Source: Albidovulum inexpectatum (GTDB lineage: Bacteria > Pseudomonadota > Alphaproteobacteria > Rhodobacterales > Rhodobacteraceae). Taken from it: 64,000 nt of DNA. How positions within the stretch are numbered: the first letter of the stretch is position 1; every line of letters starts with the position of its first letter. Under the pieces are notes generated by a model. It saw only the letters and a list, made by a program, of their open reading frames with translations, was not told where the DNA came from and made no database searches. Positions 3,429-52,599 of the stretch are shown piece by piece. The stretch spans positions 1 through 64,000 of the forward strand of contig NZ_PRDS01000005.1 in NCBI RefSeq assembly GCF_002927635.1, given 5' to 3'. Both the position numbers and the translations under genes were made by a program.

Positions 3429-3707
3429 ATGCCGCGTTCAGTCTGGAAAGGCCCCTTCGTCGATTCCTACCTTCTGAAGAAGGCGGAAAAGGCGCATGCT
3501 TCGGGCAAGTCGGAAGTCATCAAGATCTGGTCGCGTCGTTCGACCATCCTGCCGCAATTCGTCGGTCTGACCTTTGGTGTCTATAACGGTCAGAAGCATA
3601 TCCCGGTCACCGTGACCGAGGAGATGATCGGCCAGAAGTTCGGTGAATATTCGCCGACCCGCACCTATTATGGCCACGCCGCCGACAAGAAAGCCAAGAG
3701 GAAGTAA
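3429..3707 (+). CDS. rpsS: 30S ribosomal protein S19
   Basis: 92 residues. S19 is a 30S head protein that contacts the decoding site and intersubunit bridges. The [12 protein letters not shown] start, the [24 protein letters not shown] core and the [13 protein letters not shown]-terminal region are all typical. It lies between rplB and rplV with 3-bp gaps on each side, within one transcript. Confidence 0.98.
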
Positions 3708-4091: not shown

Positions 4092-4792
4092 TGGGACAGA
4101 AGGTCAACCCGATCGGCATGCGCCTCCAGGTCAACCGCACCTGGGACAGCCGCTGGTACGCCGATGACAAGGATTACGGCAATCTCCTGCTGGAAGACAT
4201 CCGGATGCGCGAGTTCATCCGGAAGGAATGCAGCCAGGCGGGCGTGTCGCGTGTCATCATCGAGCGGCCGCACAAGAAGTGCCGCGTCACCATCCACACC
4301 GCGCGTCCGGGCGTGATCATCGGCAAGAAGGGCGCCGATATCGAAACCCTGCGCAAGAAGCTGGCAAAGTTCACCGACAGCGAGCTGCATCTCAACATCG
4401 TTGAAGTGCGCAAGCCGGAGGTGGATGCGCAGCTGGTGGCGGACTCGATCGCGCAGCAGCTCGAGCGCCGGGTGTCGTTCCGTCGCGCGATGAAGCGCGC
4501 GGTGCAGAACGCCATGCGGATGGGTGCCCTTGGCATCCGGGTCAATGTCGCGGGTCGTCTTGGCGGCGCCGAGATTGCCCGGACGGAATGGTACCGCGAA
4601 GGCCGCGTGCCGCTGCACACGCTGCGTGCCGACATCGACTATGCCCTGTCGGAGGCCAAGACTCCCTATGGGATCATCGGGGTCAAGGTCTGGATCTTCA
4701 AGGGCGAGATCATGGAACACGATCCGCAGGCCCATGACCGTCGACTGACCGAGGCCCAGGACGGCCCGTCGTCGCGCGGTCAGCGCCGCTGA
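4091..4792 (+). CDS. rpsC: 30S ribosomal protein S3
   Basis: 233 residues. S3 lies at the mRNA entry channel and has mRNA helicase activity with S4 and S5. ATG 4091 was chosen because it gives the canonical [12 protein letters not shown] start and overlaps the rplV stop by one base; the frame is open further upstream but with out-of-family sequence. The KH-type loop [12 protein letters not shown] and the C-terminal [15 protein letters not shown] segment are clear. The C-terminal tail is short. Confidence 0.98.
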
Positions 4793-4815
4793 GCCTAGCT
4801 CGAGGAGACAGATAG

Positions 4816-35760: not shown

Positions 35761-38370
35761 ATGCAAGACGACAAGCGATTGAGACCTGATTCCCGGAGCC
35801 AGGGGGACGGCCTTGAGCCGGACGAGGTGCGTCGGCGTCTTGCGCGCTTTGGGCCCAACGAGATCGGCCAAACCGTTTCGGTTGCTCCGCACCGCGTACT
35901 GGCGCGGCAATTCGCAAGCCCGCTTGTTCTGCTTCTGCTTGGCGCGGCCGTGATTGCGGGATTGCTGGGCGAGATCGTGGACATGGCCGCGATCCTGCTG
36001 GTCGTCGGGCTGAACGCCATTCTGGGTTTCGTGCAGGAATGGCGGGCCGAGACGGCGATTGCCGCGCTGCGCGGCATGCTGGCGCCCCGGGCGCGGGTGC
36101 GGCGTGCCGGTCAGGAAGCTGTCGTACCAGCCCGCGATCTGGTGCCCGGGGACGTGGTGCTGGTCGAGGCCGGAGATCGCGTTCCGGCCGATCTGCGTCT
36201 GATCCTGGCCTCTGGTTTGCGCATCGACGAAAGCGTTCTGACCGGAGAATCGGTTGCTGTCGACAAGTCGCTCGACCCGGGAGAGGAGCACCTCTTCATG
36301 GGAACGCTGGTGGTCGCGGGTCGTGGCGAGGCCGTGGTCGAGGCCACCGGCGCCCGGACGCGGCTGGGCCAGATCGCGGGTATGACGCAGGCCGTTGCGG
36401 GGCGTTCCACGGTTCTGAGCCAGCGACTTGCCCGACTTGCGCGCCAGATCGGGCTGGTTGCTGTCATGGTTGCATGCGCGGTTGTGCTGCTTGGGCTCTG
36501 GAGGGGCGAATCCCTGACGGTCATGGGGATCACGGCGCTGTCTTTGGCGGTCGCCGCCGTGCCCGAGGGGCTGCCTGCTGTCGTGACCGTGACTCTTGCC
36601 TTGGGCGCATCGGCCATGGCGCGGCGCAAGGCGCTGGTCCGCAGGTTGCAGGCGGTCGAGACGCTGGGGTCGGCCTCGGTCATCTGTACCGACAAGACCG
36701 GAACGCTGACCGAAAACCGCATGACCGCGCGGATCATCCGCACGCCCGAGGCGCTGTACGAGGTCACGGGAAGCGGCCATGACCCCGCCGGACATATCGC
36801 CCGCGCCGGTCGGCGCGTGCGCGCATCGGATGATCCGGGATTGGCCGCGCTTCTTGAGGCCGCGATCGGCTGCAACAATGCGCGGCTGGTGCGACAGGGC
36901 GACGATTGGCAAATGGTCGGCGAGCCGACCGAAGGCGCCCTGGTCGTCCTTGCCTACAAGGGTTGGGTCGCTCCGGACGCGCCCGGCCCGCGGGAGCTGG
37001 AAATTCCCTTCGACAGCGACCGCAAGATGATGAGCGTCATTGTCCGCGTGGCGACCGGGCGCAGGCTGCTGACCAAGGGGGCGCCGGAATCCGTCATTCC
37101 GCGCTGCGACAGGCTGCGCCACGGCGCCAGGGTCCTGCCGATGGATCGGGATGCGCGGGACGACATTGCGCGCCAGTATGACGATATGGCTGCTCAGGGT
37201 CTGCGCGTTCTTGCCCTGGCCGAGCGCGATCTGCCGGGCCTGACCGATGACCCCGAGCAGAACCTGACTTTCCTGGGACTTGTCGGCCTGATCGACCCAC
37301 CGCGTCCGGAAGTGCCTGCCGCCATTTCCGAGGCTCGCGGGGCGGGAATCGGCATCGTGATGATCACGGGGGATGCGCCAAATACCGCCCGTGCGATCGC
37401 GCGGGCCGTGGGCCTGAGCGCCAAGCCGGTCATTACCGGTGCCGAACTCGAGAATATGGACGATTCCGCGCTGCGCGTTGCGCTGGGCGGGGAGCCGGTT
37501 TTCGCCCGCACGGCGCCCGAGCAGAAGATGCGGATCGTCGCTGTCCTGCAGGCGATGGGACATGTCGTGGCAATGACCGGCGACGGGGTGAACGACGCCC
37601 CGGCGCTGAAAGCGGCCGATATTGGTATTGCGATGGGGCAGAGGGGAACGGATGTTGCCCGGGAAGCGGCGGATCTGGTGCTGCTGGACGACAACTTCGC
37701 CACGATCGTGGCCGCGATCGAGGAAGGTCGCCGTCAATTCGCGAACCTGCGCAAGTTTGTCCTGTACCTGTTTTCGGCCAATCTGGGCGAGGTTCTTGCA
37801 ATCATGGGAAATCTCGCGATCGGCGCGCCGCTGATGCTGTTGGCGACACAGATCCTGTGGATGAATCTTGTGACCGATGGCGCAGTTGCCCTGGCGCTGG
37901 GCGCGGAAAGGGCCGAGCCCGGCCAGATGCGGCAAAAGCCCCGCCCGCGCGATGCGGCCCTGATCGGACGCGAGGGATTCGTGATCCTTGTCCTGTTCGG
38001 CCTGTATGTTGCTGCAGCCGGCATGGCGGCGTTCCAGATTGGTCTGCAGCAAGGCCTGGAACATGCCCGTGGCATGGCATTCGGTGCCATCGTAATGGTC
38101 CAGGTTCTGGGCGTGTTTGGTTTCCGATCCCTGGCCGTTCCTTGCACGCGGCTTGGCTGGCTGTCGAACCCGGCCTTGGTCGTGGCCGTACTGGCCACGC
38201 TGGCCGTGCAGGCCATGGCCTTTCATTGGGCCCCGCTTTCGGCGCTTTTGCATGCCCGGGCGCTGGGCGTGGGGGATTGGGCCATTCTCGTGGCCTTGGC
38301 CCTGCCGGGGCTGTTCCTTCCCGAAATGGCCAAGACGCTGTGGCGTGAAAGGCACCTTGGGGCGGCTTGA
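35761..38370 (+). CDS. P-type cation-transporting ATPase (P2A/P2B-like, calcium type)
   Basis: 869 residues. N-terminal cation-ATPase domain (DEVRRRLARFGPNEIGQ), A-domain TGES (VLTGESVAVDK), phosphorylation motif ICTDKTGTLTENRMT with D311, nucleotide-binding KGAPE, and hinge TGDGVNDAPALK, then six C-terminal helices. The domain order matches bacterial Ca2+/Mn2+-type pumps (PacL/PMR1-like) rather than heavy-metal P1B pumps, because N-terminal CxxC and the CPx motif are absent. The ion is inferred. ATG 35761 replaces a frame that extends back towards the tRNA. Confidence 0.92.
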   Translation: MQDDKRLRPDSRSQGDGLEPDEVRRRLARFGPNEIGQTVSVAPHRVLARQFASPLVLLLLGAAVIAGLLGEIVDMAAILLVVGLNAILGFVQEWRAETAIAALRGMLAPRARVRRAGQEAVVPARDLVPGDVVLVEAGDRVPADLRLILASGLRIDESVLTGESVAVDKSLDPGEEHLFMGTLVVAGRGEAVVEATGARTRLGQIAGMTQAVAGRSTVLSQRLARLARQIGLVAVMVACAVVLLGLWRGESLTVMGITALSLAVAAVPEGLPAVVTVTLALGASAMARRKALVRRLQAVETLGSASVICTDKTGTLTENRMTARIIRTPEALYEVTGSGHDPAGHIARAGRRVRASDDPGLAALLEAAIGCNNARLVRQGDDWQMVGEPTEGALVVLAYKGWVAPDAPGPRELEIPFDSDRKMMSVIVRVATGRRLLTKGAPESVIPRCDRLRHGARVLPMDRDARDDIARQYDDMAAQGLRVLALAERDLPGLTDDPEQNLTFLGLVGLIDPPRPEVPAAISEARGAGIGIVMITGDAPNTARAIARAVGLSAKPVITGAELENMDDSALRVALGGEPVFARTAPEQKMRIVAVLQAMGHVVAMTGDGVNDAPALKAADIGIAMGQRGTDVAREAADLVLLDDNFATIVAAIEEGRRQFANLRKFVLYLFSANLGEVLAIMGNLAIGAPLMLLATQILWMNLVTDGAVALALGAERAEPGQMRQKPRPRDAALIGREGFVILVLFGLYVAAAGMAAFQIGLQQGLEHARGMAFGAIVMVQVLGVFGFRSLAVPCTRLGWLSNPALVVAVLATLAVQAMAFHWAPLSALLHARALGVGDWAILVALALPGLFLPEMAKTLWRERHLGAA

Positions 38371-38407
38371 TGCAGATTTCCGGTCATGGGTCTTGCAATG
38401 CGATTAA

Positions 38408-38427
38408 ATATTCATAAGTGCGAATAT
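38408..38427. promoter_or_regulatory. Inverted repeat ATATTC-N8-GAATAT (SqrR/BigR-type operator candidate)
   Basis: ATATTC (38408-38413), 8 bp, GAATAT (38422-38427), perfect 6-bp arms in a locally AT-rich stretch. TTGCAA at 38393-38398 could be a -35, placing the repeat over the -10 region, 21 bp before the DUF2892 gene. The ATTC-N8-GAAT form is what I recall for the persulfide-responsive ArsR-type repressor SqrR of Rhodobacter; the equation is inferred. Confidence 0.6.
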
Positions 38428-38447
38428 GTCTGCAGAAGGAGGCTACG

Positions 38448-38648
38448 ATGACCCTTGATAAAGCGATTCTGGCATTTGCCGGTCTGATGGTTCTTCTGTC
38501 GGTCGTGCTGACCGTCTGGGTGTCGCCGCTTTTCGTTTGGTTCACCGTCTTCATCGGCCTGAACCTGTTGCAATCCGCGTCCACCGGCCTGTGTCCGGCG
38601 GCCTTCGTGCTGCGCAAGCTGGGCTTCCGTCCCGGCCCGGCTTTCTGA
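38448..38648 (+). CDS. DUF2892 (YgaP-like) small membrane protein
   Basis: 66 residues with two hydrophobic helices (about 5-25, 27-45) and a short conserved tail TGLCPAAFVLRKLGF containing the single conserved Cys. The C-P motif resembles the membrane part of YgaP-type rhodaneses, and free-standing DUF2892 proteins are common in sulfide and persulfide-stress operons. AGAAGGAGG precedes ATG 38448. It is followed 14 bp later by the RND adaptor gene, so the three genes probably form one transcript. Confidence 0.85.
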   Translation: MTLDKAILAFAGLMVLLSVVLTVWVSPLFVWFTVFIGLNLLQSASTGLCPAAFVLRKLGFRPGPAF

Positions 38649-38662
38649 GAAGGAGATTCGAC

Positions 38663-39628
38663 ATGATGCGTGCGACTTTGCTGGGCCTCGGGCTCTTGCT
38701 GGCGGCGCCCGCCCTGGCCGACAGCATGACCGTGGCGCCGCAGGTGATCACGGAATGGAAGTCGGTCTTTGGCCGGATCGAGCCGAAAGAGACGATCCCC
38801 GCCCGCGCCCGTATCGGTGGCACGATCGTCGAGCTGACGGTTGCCGAAGGCGATACGGTTGCCGAAGGCCAGCAGATCGCGCGCATAAAGGACGACAAGA
38901 TCGACTTTCAGATCGCCGCGCTGGATGCCCAGATCGAGGCGCTGCGCGCCCAGCTCGACGTGGCCGAAACGGAACTGCGCCGCGGCGAGACGCTTGTCGA
39001 ACGCGGTGTCGCGACCGTCCAGCGACTGGATCAGTTGCGTAGCGCGGTCGATGTCCTGCGCAACCAGATCGATTCGACCGAGGCGCAGCGCGCCGTCGCC
39101 GTTCAGCAGGCCGAGGAGGGCAGGGTGCTTGCTCCCGCCTCGGGGCGTGTCCTGACGGTGCCGGTCACGCGTGGCGGTGTGATCCAGCCCGGAGAGCCGG
39201 TTGCAACGATCGGGGTTGGCGGGTTCTACCTGCGCCTGTCGGTGCCCGAACGTCACGCTCCGGCGCTGGCCGAAGGGGACACGATCCGGATCGCGCTTCC
39301 CGAAGGTGAGGCGGCCGGCCAGATCGTCAAGCTGTATCCCCTGATCGATGGCGGACGGGTGACGGCCGATGTCGAGGTCGAGGGGCTGGACACCGATTTC
39401 GTGAATTCGCGCGTCCTGGTCCAGCTGCCGGTGGGCAGCCGCCAGGCGATACTGGTGCCGGAAAGCGCCGTCGTCACCCGCTCGGGGATCGACTTCGTGA
39501 CCGTTGCCGAGGGCGGCGCCAAGGTCGATCGGGCCGTCATTCCCGGCGAACGCCTGATCCGCGACGGGCAGAATCTGGTCGAGATCCTGACCGGCCTGCA
39601 ACCTGGTGAAGAGGTCATTGTGCCATGA
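38663..39628 (+). CDS. RND efflux periplasmic adaptor (membrane-fusion protein)
   Basis: 321 residues. Signal peptide (about 1-20, MMRATLLGLGLLLAAPALA), barrel-sandwich hybrid halves (PARARIGGTIVELTVAEGDTVAEGQ and GRVLTVPVTRGGVIQPGEPV) and a helical hairpin between them (about 75-145), then beta-barrel and membrane-proximal domains. It bridges the RND pump to an outer-membrane channel; no outer-membrane factor gene is nearby. The substrate is unknown. A strong GAGAAGGAG SD. Its TGA overlaps the pump ATG (39625). Confidence 0.92.
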   Translation: MMRATLLGLGLLLAAPALADSMTVAPQVITEWKSVFGRIEPKETIPARARIGGTIVELTVAEGDTVAEGQQIARIKDDKIDFQIAALDAQIEALRAQLDVAETELRRGETLVERGVATVQRLDQLRSAVDVLRNQIDSTEAQRAVAVQQAEEGRVLAPASGRVLTVPVTRGGVIQPGEPVATIGVGGFYLRLSVPERHAPALAEGDTIRIALPEGEAAGQIVKLYPLIDGGRVTADVEVEGLDTDFVNSRVLVQLPVGSRQAILVPESAVVTRSGIDFVTVAEGGAKVDRAVIPGERLIRDGQNLVEILTGLQPGEEVIVP

Positions 39629-42600
39629 GCGAACATGAACACGCCCTTGGCATCGCGGGCCGCCTGACGCGCGGCTTCATCACGTCGCCTCTATCGCCGC
39701 TGATGCTGCTTGCGGCCTTTGTCTTCGGGATGGTCGCGCTCGTATCGCTGCCGCGCGAGGAAGAGCCCCAGATCTCGGTCCCGATGGTCGACATCATCGT
39801 GCGCGCCGACGGGTTGCGCGCCGAGGATGCCGTCAAGCTGATCACCGAGCCGCTGGAGACGATCGTCAAGGGCATCAACGAGGTCGAACACGTCTATTCG
39901 CAGACTGCGGATGACGTCGTGATGGTCACGGCGCGGTTCCTGGTGGGTACGTCGTCGGACGCGGCGATCCTGCGGGTTCACGAAAAGCTGCGCGCCAACA
40001 TGGATCGCATTCCTGTCGGCATTCCCGAACCCATGATCGTCGCGCGTGGGATCGACGATGTGGCGATCCTGTCCCTGACGCTGTCGCCCCGGCCCGAAGC
40101 CGCCGATCGAATCTCGGCCAATGACCTGACACGGATTGCCCGCGAATTGCGCAGCGAAGTGGCGAAGATCCCCGATGTCGGCCTGACCTACATCGTGGGA
40201 GAGACGGCAGAACGGATCCGGATCGCGCCCGATCCGCGCCGCCTGGCGCTGTATGGCGTCACGCTGCAGCAGCTTGCCGCCAAGGTGCAGGGCGCCAACC
40301 GTGCCGTTCCCTTGGGAGACCTGCGCGATGACGGAGAGCAGATTGAATTGGTCGCGGGTGAGACGCTGCCCTCGCCAGCCGAGATCGGTAACCTGCTGCT
40401 GACCACGCGCGACGGGCGCCCGGTCTATGTCCGCGATGTGGCCGATGTATCGTTGACCTGGGGCGCCGAGGAACACCGCGTATCCCAAGTCACGCGCGAA
40501 GGCGACGCGCTGTCCCGTCGCCCGGCCGTCACGCTTGCGGTGGCCAAGCGTGCGGGCGCGAACGCTGTTACCGTGGCCGAAGAAATCCTGCACCGGGTTC
40601 ATCTGCTGGAAGGCAAGCTGATCCCCGACGATGTCGCGATCGAGGTCACGCGCGATTATGGCGAAAGCGCCAATGAAAAGGCCAATGAGCTGTTGTTCCA
40701 CCTCGCTCTGGCCACGGTTTCGATCGTCTTGCTTGTCTGGGCGGCAATCGGTTGGCGCGAGGCGGTCGTCGTGGCGATCGTCATCCCGGTCACGATCCTG
40801 CTGACGCTGTTTGCCTCTTGGCTGATGGGCTACACGCTGAACCGGGTGTCGCTGTTCGCGCTGATCTTCTCGATCGGGATCCTGGTTGATGATGCGATCG
40901 TGGTGATCGAGAACATCGCGCGTCACTGGGCCATGCGCGACGGGCGCAGCCGCATTCAGGCCGCGATCGACGCCGTGGCCGAGGTTGGCAACCCGACGAT
41001 CGTCGCCACGCTGACCGTTGTTGCGGCGCTTCTGCCGATGTTGTTCGTGTCTGGTCTGATGGGCCCCTATATGAGCCCGATTCCGGCGAATGCCTCGGCC
41101 GCGATGATCTTTTCGTTCTTCGTCGCGGTGATGGTCACGCCATGGCTGATGGTCAAGGTGGCCGGTCGTGCCGACATGTCCGCACATGCCCACGATGACA
41201 GCTATGGCGGCCATCCGGGTGGCGCGCTTGGCCGCGCCTATGCGCGGGTTGCCGCGCCATTGCTGAAATCAAAGGGGCGTAGCTGGCTGTTCCTTGCCGT
41301 TGTCACGGTGCTGACGCTTGGGTCGCTGTCGCTGTTCTACACCAGGCACGTGACCGTCAAGCTTCTGCCCTTCGACAACAAGTCGGAACTGTCGGTGATG
41401 ATCGACCTTCCCGAAGGGGCTTCGGTCGAGGCAACCGATGCGGTGGCGCAGGCCGTCGCCCGTGCGGTTCTGGAACTGCCCGAGGTCGTCTCGGCCCAGA
41501 CCCATGCGGGGACATCCGCGCCGTTCAACTTCAACGGTCTTGTGCGCCACTATTACCTGCGCAGCAGCCCGGAAATGGGCGAGGTTGCCATCAACCTGGC
41601 GCCCAAGGCCGAACGCGACCGCACCAGCCACGAGATCGCGCTGGAAATCCGCAACCGGATCGCCACGATTCCCGTTCCGGAAGGGACCGTGCTCAAGACG
41701 GTCGAGCCGCCTCCGGGCCCGCCGGTCCTGTCCACGCTGCTGGCCGAGATCTATGGCCCTGACGCCGAAACCCGGCGCGCCGTCGCCCAGCGTGTCGAGG
41801 CCGCGTTCCGGTCCGTGCCCTTCATCGTCGATGTGGACAATTCCTATGGCGATCCCGCGCGGCGGCTTCGGCTGACGGTTTCGACCGACAATGCGGAGTT
41901 CTTCCAGGTTCAGGAATCGGACGTGTTCGACACGGTTGCCCTGCTGAATGGTGGCACGACGGTGGGCTATTCGCACCGCGGTGGTGGCCGCCAGCCGATC
42001 CCGATCCGCATCGAGCGGCCGAAATCCGAACGGCGCCTGGACGAAACCTTTCTGTCCACGCCGATACCGGCCAATGTGTTGCCGGGTGCGCGCGGCGTGG
42101 TCGAACTGGGCGACGTCGTCGAATTGCGCGAGGAGCGCGCATCATTCCCGATCTTCCGCCACAATGGACGTGCCGCCGAAATGGTCACGGCCGAACTGGC
42201 CGGGGACTTCGAGGCACCGCTTTATGGCATGATCGCCGTGCAGAAGGCTCTGGACGCGCAGGATTGGGGAGATCTGCCCAAGCCGGTGATCCGGCTTCAC
42301 GGCCAGCCCGAGGATGAAGGTCAGCCAACGCTTTTGTGGGACGGCGAGTGGGAGGTCACCTGGGTGACGTTCCGCGACATGGGCGCGGCCTTTGGCGTCG
42401 CCTTGCTGGGTATCTATATCCTGGTCGTCGCGCAATTCGGCTCGTTCCGGGTGCCCCTGGTGATCCTGACGCCGGTTCCACTGACCTTCATCGGCATTCT
42501 GTTGGGCCACTGGGCCTTTGGTGCGCCCTTTTCGGCGACGTCGATGATCGGCTTCATCGCGCTGGCCGGGATCATCGTTCGCAACTCGATCCTGCTGGTG

Positions 42601-42840
42601 GATTTCATCCGTCATGCCAGGGCGCCGGGACGGCCGCTGACCGAGGTGCTGATCGAGGCTGGCTCGATCCGGTTCAAGCCGATCCTGCTGACGGCGCTGG
42701 CGGCCATGATCGGCGCGGCGGTGATCCTGTTCGACCCGATCTTCCAGGGGCTAGCGATTTCGCTGCTCTTCGGGCTTGCCTCGTCCACGCTGTTGACCGT
42801 TCTGGTCATTCCGGCCCTCTATCGCGTGCTGCGAAGCTGA
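39625..42840 (+). CDS. RND efflux transporter permease
   Basis: 1071 residues, full length for an AcrB/CusA-class pump. Twelve TM helices with two large periplasmic loops. TM4 carries the D-D proton-relay signature in FSIGILVDDAIVVIENIARH, and the C-terminal GIIVRNSILLVDFI corresponds to TM10. The loop sequence is closer to the HAE1-like branch of proteobacteria without CusA Met triads, so drug, lipid or sulfur-compound export is more likely than copper. It overlaps the adaptor by 4 bp and is closed by a hairpin. Confidence 0.93.
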   Translation: MSEHEHALGIAGRLTRGFITSPLSPLMLLAAFVFGMVALVSLPREEEPQISVPMVDIIVRADGLRAEDAVKLITEPLETIVKGINEVEHVYSQTADDVVMVTARFLVGTSSDAAILRVHEKLRANMDRIPVGIPEPMIVARGIDDVAILSLTLSPRPEAADRISANDLTRIARELRSEVAKIPDVGLTYIVGETAERIRIAPDPRRLALYGVTLQQLAAKVQGANRAVPLGDLRDDGEQIELVAGETLPSPAEIGNLLLTTRDGRPVYVRDVADVSLTWGAEEHRVSQVTREGDALSRRPAVTLAVAKRAGANAVTVAEEILHRVHLLEGKLIPDDVAIEVTRDYGESANEKANELLFHLALATVSIVLLVWAAIGWREAVVVAIVIPVTILLTLFASWLMGYTLNRVSLFALIFSIGILVDDAIVVIENIARHWAMRDGRSRIQAAIDAVAEVGNPTIVATLTVVAALLPMLFVSGLMGPYMSPIPANASAAMIFSFFVAVMVTPWLMVKVAGRADMSAHAHDDSYGGHPGGALGRAYARVAAPLLKSKGRSWLFLAVVTVLTLGSLSLFYTRHVTVKLLPFDNKSELSVMIDLPEGASVEATDAVAQAVARAVLELPEVVSAQTHAGTSAPFNFNGLVRHYYLRSSPEMGEVAINLAPKAERDRTSHEIALEIRNRIATIPVPEGTVLKTVEPPPGPPVLSTLLAEIYGPDAETRRAVAQRVEAAFRSVPFIVDVDNSYGDPARRLRLTVSTDNAEFFQVQESDVFDTVALLNGGTTVGYSHRGGGRQPIPIRIERPKSERRLDETFLSTPIPANVLPGARGVVELGDVVELREERASFPIFRHNGRAAEMVTAELAGDFEAPLYGMIAVQKALDAQDWGDLPKPVIRLHGQPEDEGQPTLLWDGEWEVTWVTFRDMGAAFGVALLGIYILVVAQFGSFRVPLVILTPVPLTFIGILLGHWAFGAPFSATSMIGFIALAGIIVRNSILLVDFIRHARAPGRPLTEVLIEAGSIRFKPILLTALAAMIGAAVILFDPIFQGLAISLLFGLASSTLLTVLVIPALYRVLRS

Positions 42841-48993: not shown

Positions 48994-49590
48994 ATGATAC
49001 GTCTATATGCGCTTGCCTGCGCCATGCTTGCATTTTTCGCTCTGCCGACCTTGGCGCAGGAGCCGCTCGTGAAGATCACCGCCGAAATTGCCACGGTCAC
49101 GGTCCAGACTCCGAATGGCCCGGTCGAGATCGGCCGCGAGCAGAACCCCGATGCCCGGCTGGAGGGCGACTGGGCGCGGGTCGCGCGCGATTGTCCGCCT
49201 TTCTGCATTCAGCCCATGACGCCGGCCCCGGGTGTCACGACGATCGGCGAACTGGAGCTTCTGGAACTTCTGACCGATCCCGCGGCGATGGTGATCGACA
49301 GCCGGACACGGGACTGGTTCGAAGGTGGCACGATCCCGGGTTCGGTCAATATCCCCTACAACGAGATCGGCGACCGTCTGGCAGAACTTGGCTGCGAGGC
49401 GGATTTCGATGGCTGGGATTGCTCGAATGCGAGAAAGGTGGCGCTGTTCTGCAATGGCCTGTGGTGCGGCCAGTCGCCCTCGGCCATTCGGGTGATGCTG
49501 TCGCTCGGCTATCCGGCCGACAAGATCCACTATTACCGTGGCGGCATGCAGGTCTGGCGCCTGCTTGGGTTGACCGTGGTTCAGCCCTGA
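48994..49590 (+). CDS. Secreted rhodanese-like protein
   Basis: 198 residues. Signal peptide (about 1-21, MIRLYALACAMLAFFALPTLA) followed by a rhodanese domain (about 85-198). VIDSRTRDWFEGGTIPGSVNIPYNEIGDRL is the N-terminal half, and the active-site Cys is in CNGLWCGQSPSAIRVML, here with a second Cys four residues later. It is probably periplasmic, unlike most rhodaneses, with a role in sulfur transfer or oxidative folding that cannot be named from sequence. Strong AAGGGAGG SD. It runs divergently from ffh. Confidence 0.9.
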   Translation: MIRLYALACAMLAFFALPTLAQEPLVKITAEIATVTVQTPNGPVEIGREQNPDARLEGDWARVARDCPPFCIQPMTPAPGVTTIGELELLELLTDPAAMVIDSRTRDWFEGGTIPGSVNIPYNEIGDRLAELGCEADFDGWDCSNARKVALFCNGLWCGQSPSAIRVMLSLGYPADKIHYYRGGMQVWRLLGLTVVQP

Positions 49591-51330: not shown

Positions 51331-52255
51331 GCCGGGCCGAACGGGAACCTTGCGGCCGACCATGCAGGGCCATGCGGCGATGCTGGTTTTTTCGTCGCTC
51401 GTTGCCGGGTCATTCCCCCTGGGGGCGATGGTCGCGAACGCGATCTCTCCCAGTGCCTTCACGGCCCTGCGGTTCATTCTCGCGGCAGCCCTGATCGGGC
51501 TGGCTGTCGCCATGGGCCCCGGTCTGCCGCGGGCGGCGCTGAGGGCTCCGTGGCGCTACATGGTGCTGGGGGGCATCTTTGCCAGCTATTTCATCCTGAT
51601 GTTCGAGGGGCTCAAGACCGCGAATCCCGTCTCTGCCGCTGCTGTGTTCACGCTGACGCCGATCATGTCGGCCGGATTCGGCTGGCTGCTGCTGCGCCAG
51701 ATGTTGACGGCCCGCGTGGCGATGGCGCTGGCCCTTGGAGGCGTAGGGGCGCTTTGGGTGATATTCCGCGGAGACCTGGCCGCTGCCGCGCGGCTCGAAC
51801 TGGGGCGGGGCGAGGCGGTCTACATGCTGGGCTGCGCGGCGCATGCCTTCTATACGCCGCTTGTGCGCCGTCTGAATCGCGGCGAAAGCCCGCTGGTCTT
51901 TACCTTTGGCACGTTGCTTGGGGGCAGTGTCGTGACGACGATCTATGCCTGGGGTGACATCCGCGCGACCGAATGGCTGTCCCTGCCGTCGATCGTCTGG
52001 GTGACGCTTGCCTATACCACGGTCTTTGCCAGCGCCGTGACTTTCGTCCTGCTTCAGTTCGCAACGCTGCGGCTGCCTTCGGCCAAGGTGATGGCCTATA
52101 CCTATCTGGTGCCCGGCTGGGTGCTGGTCTGGCAGATGGGGCTGGGGCAGCCGTTCCCGGGCCTTGTCGTCGCGCCGGGCCTGGCGCTGACGCTGGGTGC
52201 CTTGGCGCTGTTGTTGAGGGACGACACCTCGGTGCCGATTGCGGCTGAAACCTAG
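51323..52255 (+). CDS. EamA/DMT-family transporter (RhaT-like)
   Basis: 310 residues with ten hydrophobic helices in two EamA repeats (about 15-145 and 160-300), the drug/metabolite-transporter fold of the inner membrane. SPSAFTALRFILAAALIGLAVAM and AVFTLTPIMSAGFGWLLLRQML are typical of the first repeat. The substrate is unknown. It begins inside the LysR gene (ATG 51323, or ATG 51362) and may be co-transcribed with it. Its TAG lies in a CTAG shared with the convergent ArsR gene. Confidence 0.9.
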   Translation: MPEPGRTGTLRPTMQGHAAMLVFSSLVAGSFPLGAMVANAISPSAFTALRFILAAALIGLAVAMGPGLPRAALRAPWRYMVLGGIFASYFILMFEGLKTANPVSAAAVFTLTPIMSAGFGWLLLRQMLTARVAMALALGGVGALWVIFRGDLAAAARLELGRGEAVYMLGCAAHAFYTPLVRRLNRGESPLVFTFGTLLGGSVVTTIYAWGDIRATEWLSLPSIVWVTLAYTTVFASAVTFVLLQFATLRLPSAKVMAYTYLVPGWVLVWQMGLGQPFPGLVVAPGLALTLGALALLLRDDTSVPIAAET

Positions 52256-52599
52256 TCCGACTCGGGCAGGGTTTCGGGCAGTTCACTTCGCAGGAACAGC
52301 TCGAATGCATCGAGATCGAGCGGATCGAACAGGCCGAAACCCTGGATCCAGACCGAGGCCGCGCGCATCGCGTCGGGCTCCAGCTTGCACCACTTGACCC
52401 TTCCCCGCCGCTCCTGGCTGATCAGGCCCGCCTCGGCCAGGACGGCCAGGTGCTTCGAGATCGCCGCAAGCGACATCTCGAACGGCGCGGCGACATCGGT
52501 CACGGCCATGTCGTCCTCAAGCAGCATCATCAGGATCTGCCGTCGGGTTGGATCGGCAAGGGCGGCAAAGATGGCGTCCAGATCGGCGGGCTTTTTCAT
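52252..52599 (-). CDS. ArsR-family winged-helix regulator
   Basis: 115 residues. LDAIFAALADPTRRQILMMLLEDDMAVTDVAAPFEMSLAAISKHLAVLAEAGLISQERRGRVKWCKL is the ArsR HTH with alpha5-wing. The Cys-based metal motif (ELCVCDL) is absent, so this belongs to the non-metal group that often sits next to SRPBCC-domain genes. No such gene is adjacent here: downstream it meets the convergent EamA gene with a 4-bp overlap. A near-perfect palindrome overlaps its own -35, suggesting autorepression. Confidence 0.93.
   Translation of the reverse strand: MKKPADLDAIFAALADPTRRQILMMLLEDDMAVTDVAAPFEMSLAAISKHLAVLAEAGLISQERRGRVKWCKLEPDAMRAASVWIQGFGLFDPLDLDAFELFLRSELPETLPESD

What the first reader, a model, noticed from the sequence alone, without database searches (positions are those of the whole stretch)
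38400..39628. Possible persulfide-responsive control of a DUF2892-RND operon
A perfect ATATTC-N8-GAATAT dyad lies 21 bp before the DUF2892 gene, over the likely -10 region. The ATTC-N8-GAAT form matches the SqrR operator of Rhodobacter as I remember it. DUF2892 membrane proteins often travel with sulfide and persulfide functions. A three-gene set of DUF2892, RND adaptor and RND pump under such a site would be an efflux system for sulfur stress, which is not a standard role of RND pumps.
Basis: partly seen in the sequence, partly recalled or inferred. Interest (0 to 1): 0.62.

Follow-up and report, generated by a model that had tools for sequence, protein, structure and literature searches.

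The report
Sulfide-responsive switch on efflux-pump operon
A short mirrored DNA site in front of a three-gene efflux-pump operon is, by genome-wide and cross-species evidence, very probably the docking site of a sulfur-sensing repressor (SqrR type), which ties a poorly studied family of efflux pumps to protection against sulfide and polysulfide; what the pump exports is still unknown.

Summary
ATATTC-N8-GAATAT at 38408-38427 lies 20 nt before the ATG of a 66-aa YgaP-like_TM (former DUF2892) gene, followed by an RND adaptor and an RND pump. Only two perfect copies exist in the 3.0-Mb genome. The other precedes trxC, and the single one-mismatch copy precedes soxX; these are known targets of SqrR and SoxR. 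The genome encodes two ArsR repressors, each 64% identical to Rhodobacter capsulatus SqrR, with both sensor cysteines. In 39 family loci carrying the DUF2892 orthologue, 28 have at least 10/12 of the dyad within 150 bp (shuffles 0.3%); exact ATTC-N8-GAAT occurs in 25, other spacings in 1. The site is also found before adaptor-pump operons lacking DUF2892. Pump orthologues repeatedly sit beside two-cysteine ArsR genes and sulfide:quinone oxidoreductase (SQR), also beyond Alphaproteobacteria. Not shown: DNA binding, sulfide induction, the pump's substrate. Prior art limits novelty: RND pumps next to sulfane-sulfur ArsR genes (PMC12423496) and a sulfide-induced SQR-RND operon in Azospira (PMC5358917). 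New here: the conserved operator on this operon and the pump subfamily's wide sulfur linkage.

The parts
38408..38427 (.). operator dyad ATATTC-N8-GAATAT (SqrR-type)
   Evidence: conserved upstream of orthologues
38448..38648 (+). 66-aa YgaP-like transmembrane protein (PF11127, formerly DUF2892), conserved TG-x-CP cysteine motif
   Evidence: Pfam E 8.5e-11; TGxCP in 90 of 91 orthologues
38663..39628 (+). RND periplasmic adaptor (HlyD/MFP), 321 aa
   Evidence: TIGR01730 135 bits, above cut-off 94.9; Pfam HlyD domains
39625..42840 (+). RND inner-membrane permease, 1071 aa; overlaps the adaptor stop by 4 nt
   Evidence: ACR_tran E 8e-148; below all NCBIfam RND subfamily cut-offs

Best explanation
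The operon 38448-42840 is a member of the SqrR (persulfide-responsive ArsR repressor) regulon. When reduced, SqrR, and possibly its paralogue SoxR, binds the dyad at 38408-38427 just upstream of the start and blocks transcription. When sulfide is oxidised and polysulfides or persulfides rise, they bridge the two cysteines of the repressor, it leaves the DNA, and the operon is expressed together with trxC and the sox genes. The 66-aa YgaP-like membrane protein and the adaptor-RND pump then act in sulfide/sulfane-sulfur homeostasis. The most likely role of the pump is to remove sulfur compounds (polysulfide, zero-valent sulfur or persulfidated small thiols) from the periplasm or membrane through a TolC-type channel encoded elsewhere. 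Shown by computation: genes, site, regulators, conservation, linkage. Inferred: binding, induction, substrate (the substrate step about 0.45). The confidence given is for the regulatory part.
For: Best three sites in the genome precede trxC, sox and this operon. Two SqrR-family repressors, 64% identical to SqrR, both Cys, near-identical recognition helix. R. capsulatus trxC has the same 12-base dyad and is SqrR-controlled. Footprint: 28/39 loci with at least 10/12 against 0.3% of shuffles and 1.8% of other upstream regions; ATTC-N8-GAAT is by far the top dyad in an unbiased count, and spacing-specific; half-sites up to 2.0 bits, spacer 0.15-0.84. When DUF2892 is absent the site sits before the adaptor gene; 28/49 operons without adjacent ArsR have it, null 0.7%. 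38 ArsR proteins beside the pump all have both Cys; SQR directly upstream in 10 of 80. P. denitrificans has sulfur genes, ArsR, DUF2892, adaptor, pump and type II SQR together. ArsR linkage in 18/29 class-wide loci and 10/20 loci outside the class; 4/11 with pump against 0/28 without. TolC-type genes elsewhere in the genome.
Against: No binding or expression data for this organism. The genome has no type I SQR. Some orthologous operons lack the exact dyad, several of them with a different adjacent ArsR and another AT-rich site. DUF2892 genes carry the dyad also without the pump (22/28), so the pump could be a passenger of a DUF2892 promoter. The upstream P-type ATPase gene, 77 bp away on the same strand, may contribute read-through. 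In Azospira, deleting a comparable SQR-RND operon did not change the sulfide oxidation rate.
Confidence: 0.85

Rival explanations
1. The dyad controls the operon but the bound repressor is SoxR (or both SoxR and SqrR), so the pump belongs to the thiosulfate-oxidation (Sox) regulon rather than to general persulfide stress.
For: soxR stands at the sox cluster and a one-mismatch site precedes soxX; SoxR and SqrR of this genome have near-identical recognition helices; in Hyphomicrobium, SoxR and sHdrR bind the same DNA fragments (PMC12423496).
Against: The two perfect sites are at trxC and this operon, and trxC is an SqrR target in R. capsulatus; the dyad is conserved on the operon in many genera.
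Confidence: 0.35
2. The operator's real target is the DUF2892 membrane protein; adaptor and pump are a multidrug pump that happens to ride on its promoter and has no sulfur role.
For: The dyad precedes DUF2892 in 22/28 loci without the pump; DUF2892 travels with trxC and other genes.
Against: Many adaptor-pump operons without DUF2892 carry the dyad directly before the adaptor, some 12/12 (L122, L123, L131, L162); pump homologues are next to SQR and SqrR/BigR-family ArsR far outside the family.
Confidence: 0.12
3. The pump is induced by sulfide because it removes metal-sulfide or metal complexes (the explanation offered for Azospira RND genes), not sulfur species.
For: Proposed in PMC5358917; adaptor has weak similarity to CzcB/CusB types.
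Against: Permease scores far below the heavy-metal model cut-off (TIGR00914 259 against 701) and has the HAE-like GxxxDDAxVVxEN motif; neighbours are sulfide-oxidation genes, not metal genes.
Confidence: 0.12
4. The dyad is a chance palindrome in an AT-rich promoter.
For: ATTC-N8-GAAT alone occurs at chance frequency in the window.
Against: Spacing-specific conservation in 25/39 loci with diverged spacers; only 2 perfect 12-base sites per genome, the other at trxC.
Confidence: 0.02

Closest known systems
SqrR regulon of Rhodobacter capsulatus (sqr, trxC, rcc01557 rhodanese)
   Same: Same operator form; two SqrR-family repressors with both sensor cysteines; trxC carries the same 12-base dyad in both genomes.
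   Different: The target here is a YgaP-like membrane protein with an RND adaptor and pump; no RND target is mentioned in the SqrR papers that could be read (the 2017 PNAS paper was not held).
ygaVP of Escherichia coli (YgaV repressor, YgaP rhodanese with transmembrane domain)
   Same: SqrR/BigR homologue with an ATTC-N8-GAAT-like site controls a protein with the same transmembrane family (PF11127).
   Different: Here the transmembrane part is a stand-alone 66-aa protein without rhodanese domain, followed by an RND pump; the repressor gene is elsewhere.
Azospira suillum Dsui_3440-3443 (SQR, RND pump, adaptor, unknown protein)
   Same: RND pump and adaptor in a sulfide-induced operon, as in SQR-DUF2892-adaptor-pump operons of pump relatives.
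   Different: No operator or regulator was described in the passages read; homology of its pump to this one was not tested here; the operon was dispensable for the sulfide oxidation rate.
RND genes next to two-cysteine ArsR genes (survey in PMC12423496)
   Same: States that sulfane-sulfur ArsR regulators appear to act on RND pumps.
   Different: Based on neighbourhood; here the link is an operator at a distance from the regulator gene, conserved across genera.

Membership tests
SqrR/BigR/SoxR persulfide-sensing ArsR regulon | two-cysteine ArsR repressor of SqrR type in the genome | tested here: met
   Two genes on contig C9, 64% identical to SqrR over 90-98 residues, Cys pair aligned
SqrR/BigR/SoxR persulfide-sensing ArsR regulon | operator ATTC-N8-GAAT at the promoter | tested here: met
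   12/12 to ATATTC-N8-GAATAT, conserved in relatives
SqrR/BigR/SoxR persulfide-sensing ArsR regulon | repressor binds and is released by persulfide/polysulfide | not testable with these tools
   needs gel shift
SqrR/BigR/SoxR persulfide-sensing ArsR regulon | transcript induced by sulfide or by loss of the repressor | not testable with these tools
   needs RNA measurement
YgaP-like transmembrane (PF11127) | Pfam match above curated cut-off | tested here: met
   42.3 bits against 25.3
YgaP sulfurtransferase | fused rhodanese domain | tested here: not met
   66 aa, transmembrane domain only
RND permease, HAE1 (TIGR00915) or heavy-metal (TIGR00914) subfamily | score over curated cut-off | tested here: not met
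   275 against 940 and 259 against 701 bits; a general ACR_tran member only
RND tripartite pump | adaptor in operon and outer-membrane channel available | tested here: met
   adaptor 38663-39628; TolC-type OEP genes elsewhere in the genome

The most novel reading that the evidence does not exclude
This permease defines a distinct, unnamed RND subfamily, found across Pseudomonadota, that is dedicated to exporting zero-valent sulfur, polysulfide or persulfidated thiols produced by SQR/Sox, with the YgaP-like small membrane protein (near-invariant TG-x-CP cysteine) as its sulfur-handling partner, and controlled by SqrR-type repressors: a sulfur-efflux system not yet described experimentally.
Probability: 0.35. 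Interest if true: 0.8.

Novelty: new variant of a known kind. Interest (0 to 1): 0.56.

Why it matters
Bacterial sulfide and polysulfide defence is described mostly as enzymes (SQR, persulfide dioxygenase, rhodanese) plus small anion exporters. An RND pump of its own subfamily, under the same persulfide switch and beside SQR in many lineages, would add an efflux arm, give a physiological role to a family annotated only as 'multidrug', and offer a link between sulfide and drug tolerance that can be tested in harmless laboratory strains.

Tried and rejected
Cysteine-free pump as an adaptation: P0003 and 65 of 71 orthologues have no Cys, but unrelated RND paralogues in the same genome have 0-3, so it is not special. 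The ArsR gene in the window (52252-52599, minus) as the regulator: 29% identical to SqrR, no cysteine pair. Enrichment of ATTC-N8-GAAT in the whole genome: 22 sites is not above the shuffle rate of the window scaled up; only the 12-base form is informative. Consensus sigma-70 promoter at the site: none found. Heavy-metal RND class: not met. SQR in the operon or genome: no type I SQR here. The 2017 SqrR paper was not held, so whether R. capsulatus RND genes are in its regulon was not checked. The pump loci are one genome per species but related, so the footprint counts are not independent events; the diverged spacers argue against mere recent ancestry.

Full report
Observation. The dyad ATATTC-ATAAGTGC-GAATAT lies at 38408-38427, 20 nt before the ATG of a 66-aa gene with a good ribosome site. 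ATTC-N8-GAAT alone would be expected about once per window. The 12-base form is rare: in the 3.0-Mb genome there are two perfect sites and one with a single mismatch; the reversed control has 2 sites at up to two mismatches against 31.

Genes. The 66-aa protein is PF11127, YgaP-like transmembrane domain, formerly DUF2892; the next genes are an RND adaptor and an RND permease. The permease stays far below the curated cut-offs of all NCBIfam RND subfamilies. The operon is 38448-42840. A P-type ATPase gene (35761-38370) ends 77 bp upstream on the same strand.

The other sites in the genome. The second perfect site is directly upstream of trxC (thioredoxin 2, family). The one-mismatch site is between soxW and soxX, upstream of the sox genes (gene names from the translations, by recognition). 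Of the 19 remaining ATTC-N8-GAAT sites, 16 lie inside ORFs, and the other 3 match only 8-9 of the 12 bases. In R. capsulatus, trxC is up about 22-fold with sulfide and in the sqrR mutant, and a primer printed in that paper shows ATATTC-N8-GAATAT directly before its ATG (PMC10044876; the reading of the primer is mine). PMC9774250 gives ATTC-N8-GAAT as the SqrR site and a similar one at E. coli ygaV.

The regulators. An ArsR-family search followed by translation finds two repressors on contig C9. Each is 64% identical to R. capsulatus SqrR (PDB 6o8k-6o8o) and has both sensor cysteines. One is soxR next to the sox cluster; the other is about 6 kb away. The ArsR in the window at 52 kb is not of this type.

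Footprint. A P0001 search of 198 family genomes found 48 with a match. In the 39 best loci (window included) 28 have at least 10 of 12 dyad bases within 150 bp upstream, against 0.3% of dinucleotide shuffles and 1.8% of upstream regions of other genes. Exact ATTC-N8-GAAT occurs in 25 of 39; all other spacings from 2 to 16 together give 1. In an unbiased count of all 4-base dyads it is top with 25 loci, the next having 6. Half-site columns reach 2.0 bits; spacer columns 0.15-0.84. The sites were picked by their match to the dyad, so the bits of the half-sites are partly built in; the spacing control and the unbiased count are not.

The pump by itself. A scan of genome contigs with the pump alignment gave 80 loci. 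Where DUF2892 is absent, the dyad is found 45-134 bp before the adaptor gene, in four loci with 12/12. Among 49 operons without an adjacent ArsR gene, 28 have at least 10/12 (null 0.7%), and ATTC-N8-GAAT is again the top dyad. In 38 loci an ArsR gene is adjacent or near, and all 38 proteins have both cysteines. Ten operons read SQR-DUF2892-adaptor-pump, eight of them with a divergent ArsR gene; the SQR is type I (PDB 3sz0, E 4e-138). Paracoccus denitrificans PD1222 has, in one stretch, a metallo-beta-lactamase-fold protein, DUF2892, YeeE, DUF6691, a TIGR01244 sulfur transferase, ArsR, two cytochromes, DUF2892, adaptor, pump and a type II SQR.

How far the link reaches. In an even draw of 385 Alphaproteobacteria, 30 have the pump; ArsR of this family is within -5 to +7.5 kb in 18 of 29 loci and an SQR in 8. 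Outside the class, at about 42% identity, DUF2892 is adjacent in 15 of 20 loci, ArsR in 10, SQR in 4. Control: in 16-kb loci carrying DUF2892, ArsR occurs in 4 of 11 with the pump and 0 of 28 without it. DUF2892 counts are lower bounds because neighbouring hits were merged; the cysteine pair was checked only in the 80-locus set.

Mechanism. Best supported: reduced SqrR (or SoxR) sits on the dyad and represses; persulfide bridges its cysteines, as shown for relatives (PMC9995734, PMC5823870), and the operon is released. The function of the pump is inferred from company: SQR makes polysulfide or zero-valent sulfur at the membrane, RND pumps take substrates from membrane and periplasm (general knowledge of RND pumps), and TolC-type channels exist elsewhere in the genome. 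DUF2892 carries a near-invariant TG-x-CP cysteine (90 of 91), which could carry sulfur; that is a suggestion only.

Prior art. PMC12423496 states that sulfane-sulfur ArsR genes neighbour RND pumps. PMC5358917 reports an Azospira operon with SQR and RND genes up under sulfide oxidation, dispensable for the oxidation rate, and a DUF2892 transcript up about 10-fold. The idea of an RND pump under such control is therefore not new; the conserved operator on this operon, independent of where the regulator gene is, and the pump family's wide linkage are, as far as the held library shows.

Verdict. Observation confirmed; interpretation supported for regulation (0.85), open for transport (about 0.45).

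Noticed in passing
L061, L063, L064 (upstream of DUF2892): In three other genomes of the family trxC stands directly 5' of DUF2892, joining two targets that are separate in this genome into one apparent operon.
   Followed up: partly
L073:7691-8713 (-) and seven other loci: A ~340-aa protein with no Pfam or NCBIfam match follows DUF2892 and the dyad in eight genera: an unstudied candidate member of the persulfide response.
   Followed up: partly
L060, L078, L081: An L,D-transpeptidase-like (YkuD) gene follows the DUF2892 gene under the dyad in these three loci.
   Followed up: no
L229:441-719, 3437-3633, 4692-4800 (P. denitrificans plasmid 1): The locus with its own BigR-like ArsR shows a different AT-rich site (such as ATATACG / CGAATATA) before its operons, suggesting that operator and recognition helix changed together.
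   Followed up: no
48994-49590: Exported rhodanese-domain protein in the same window; its upstream region was not tested for the dyad beyond the window-wide search, which found none there.
   Followed up: no
35761-38370: Calcium-type P-type ATPase gene directly upstream on the same strand; read-through into the operon is possible.
   Followed up: no
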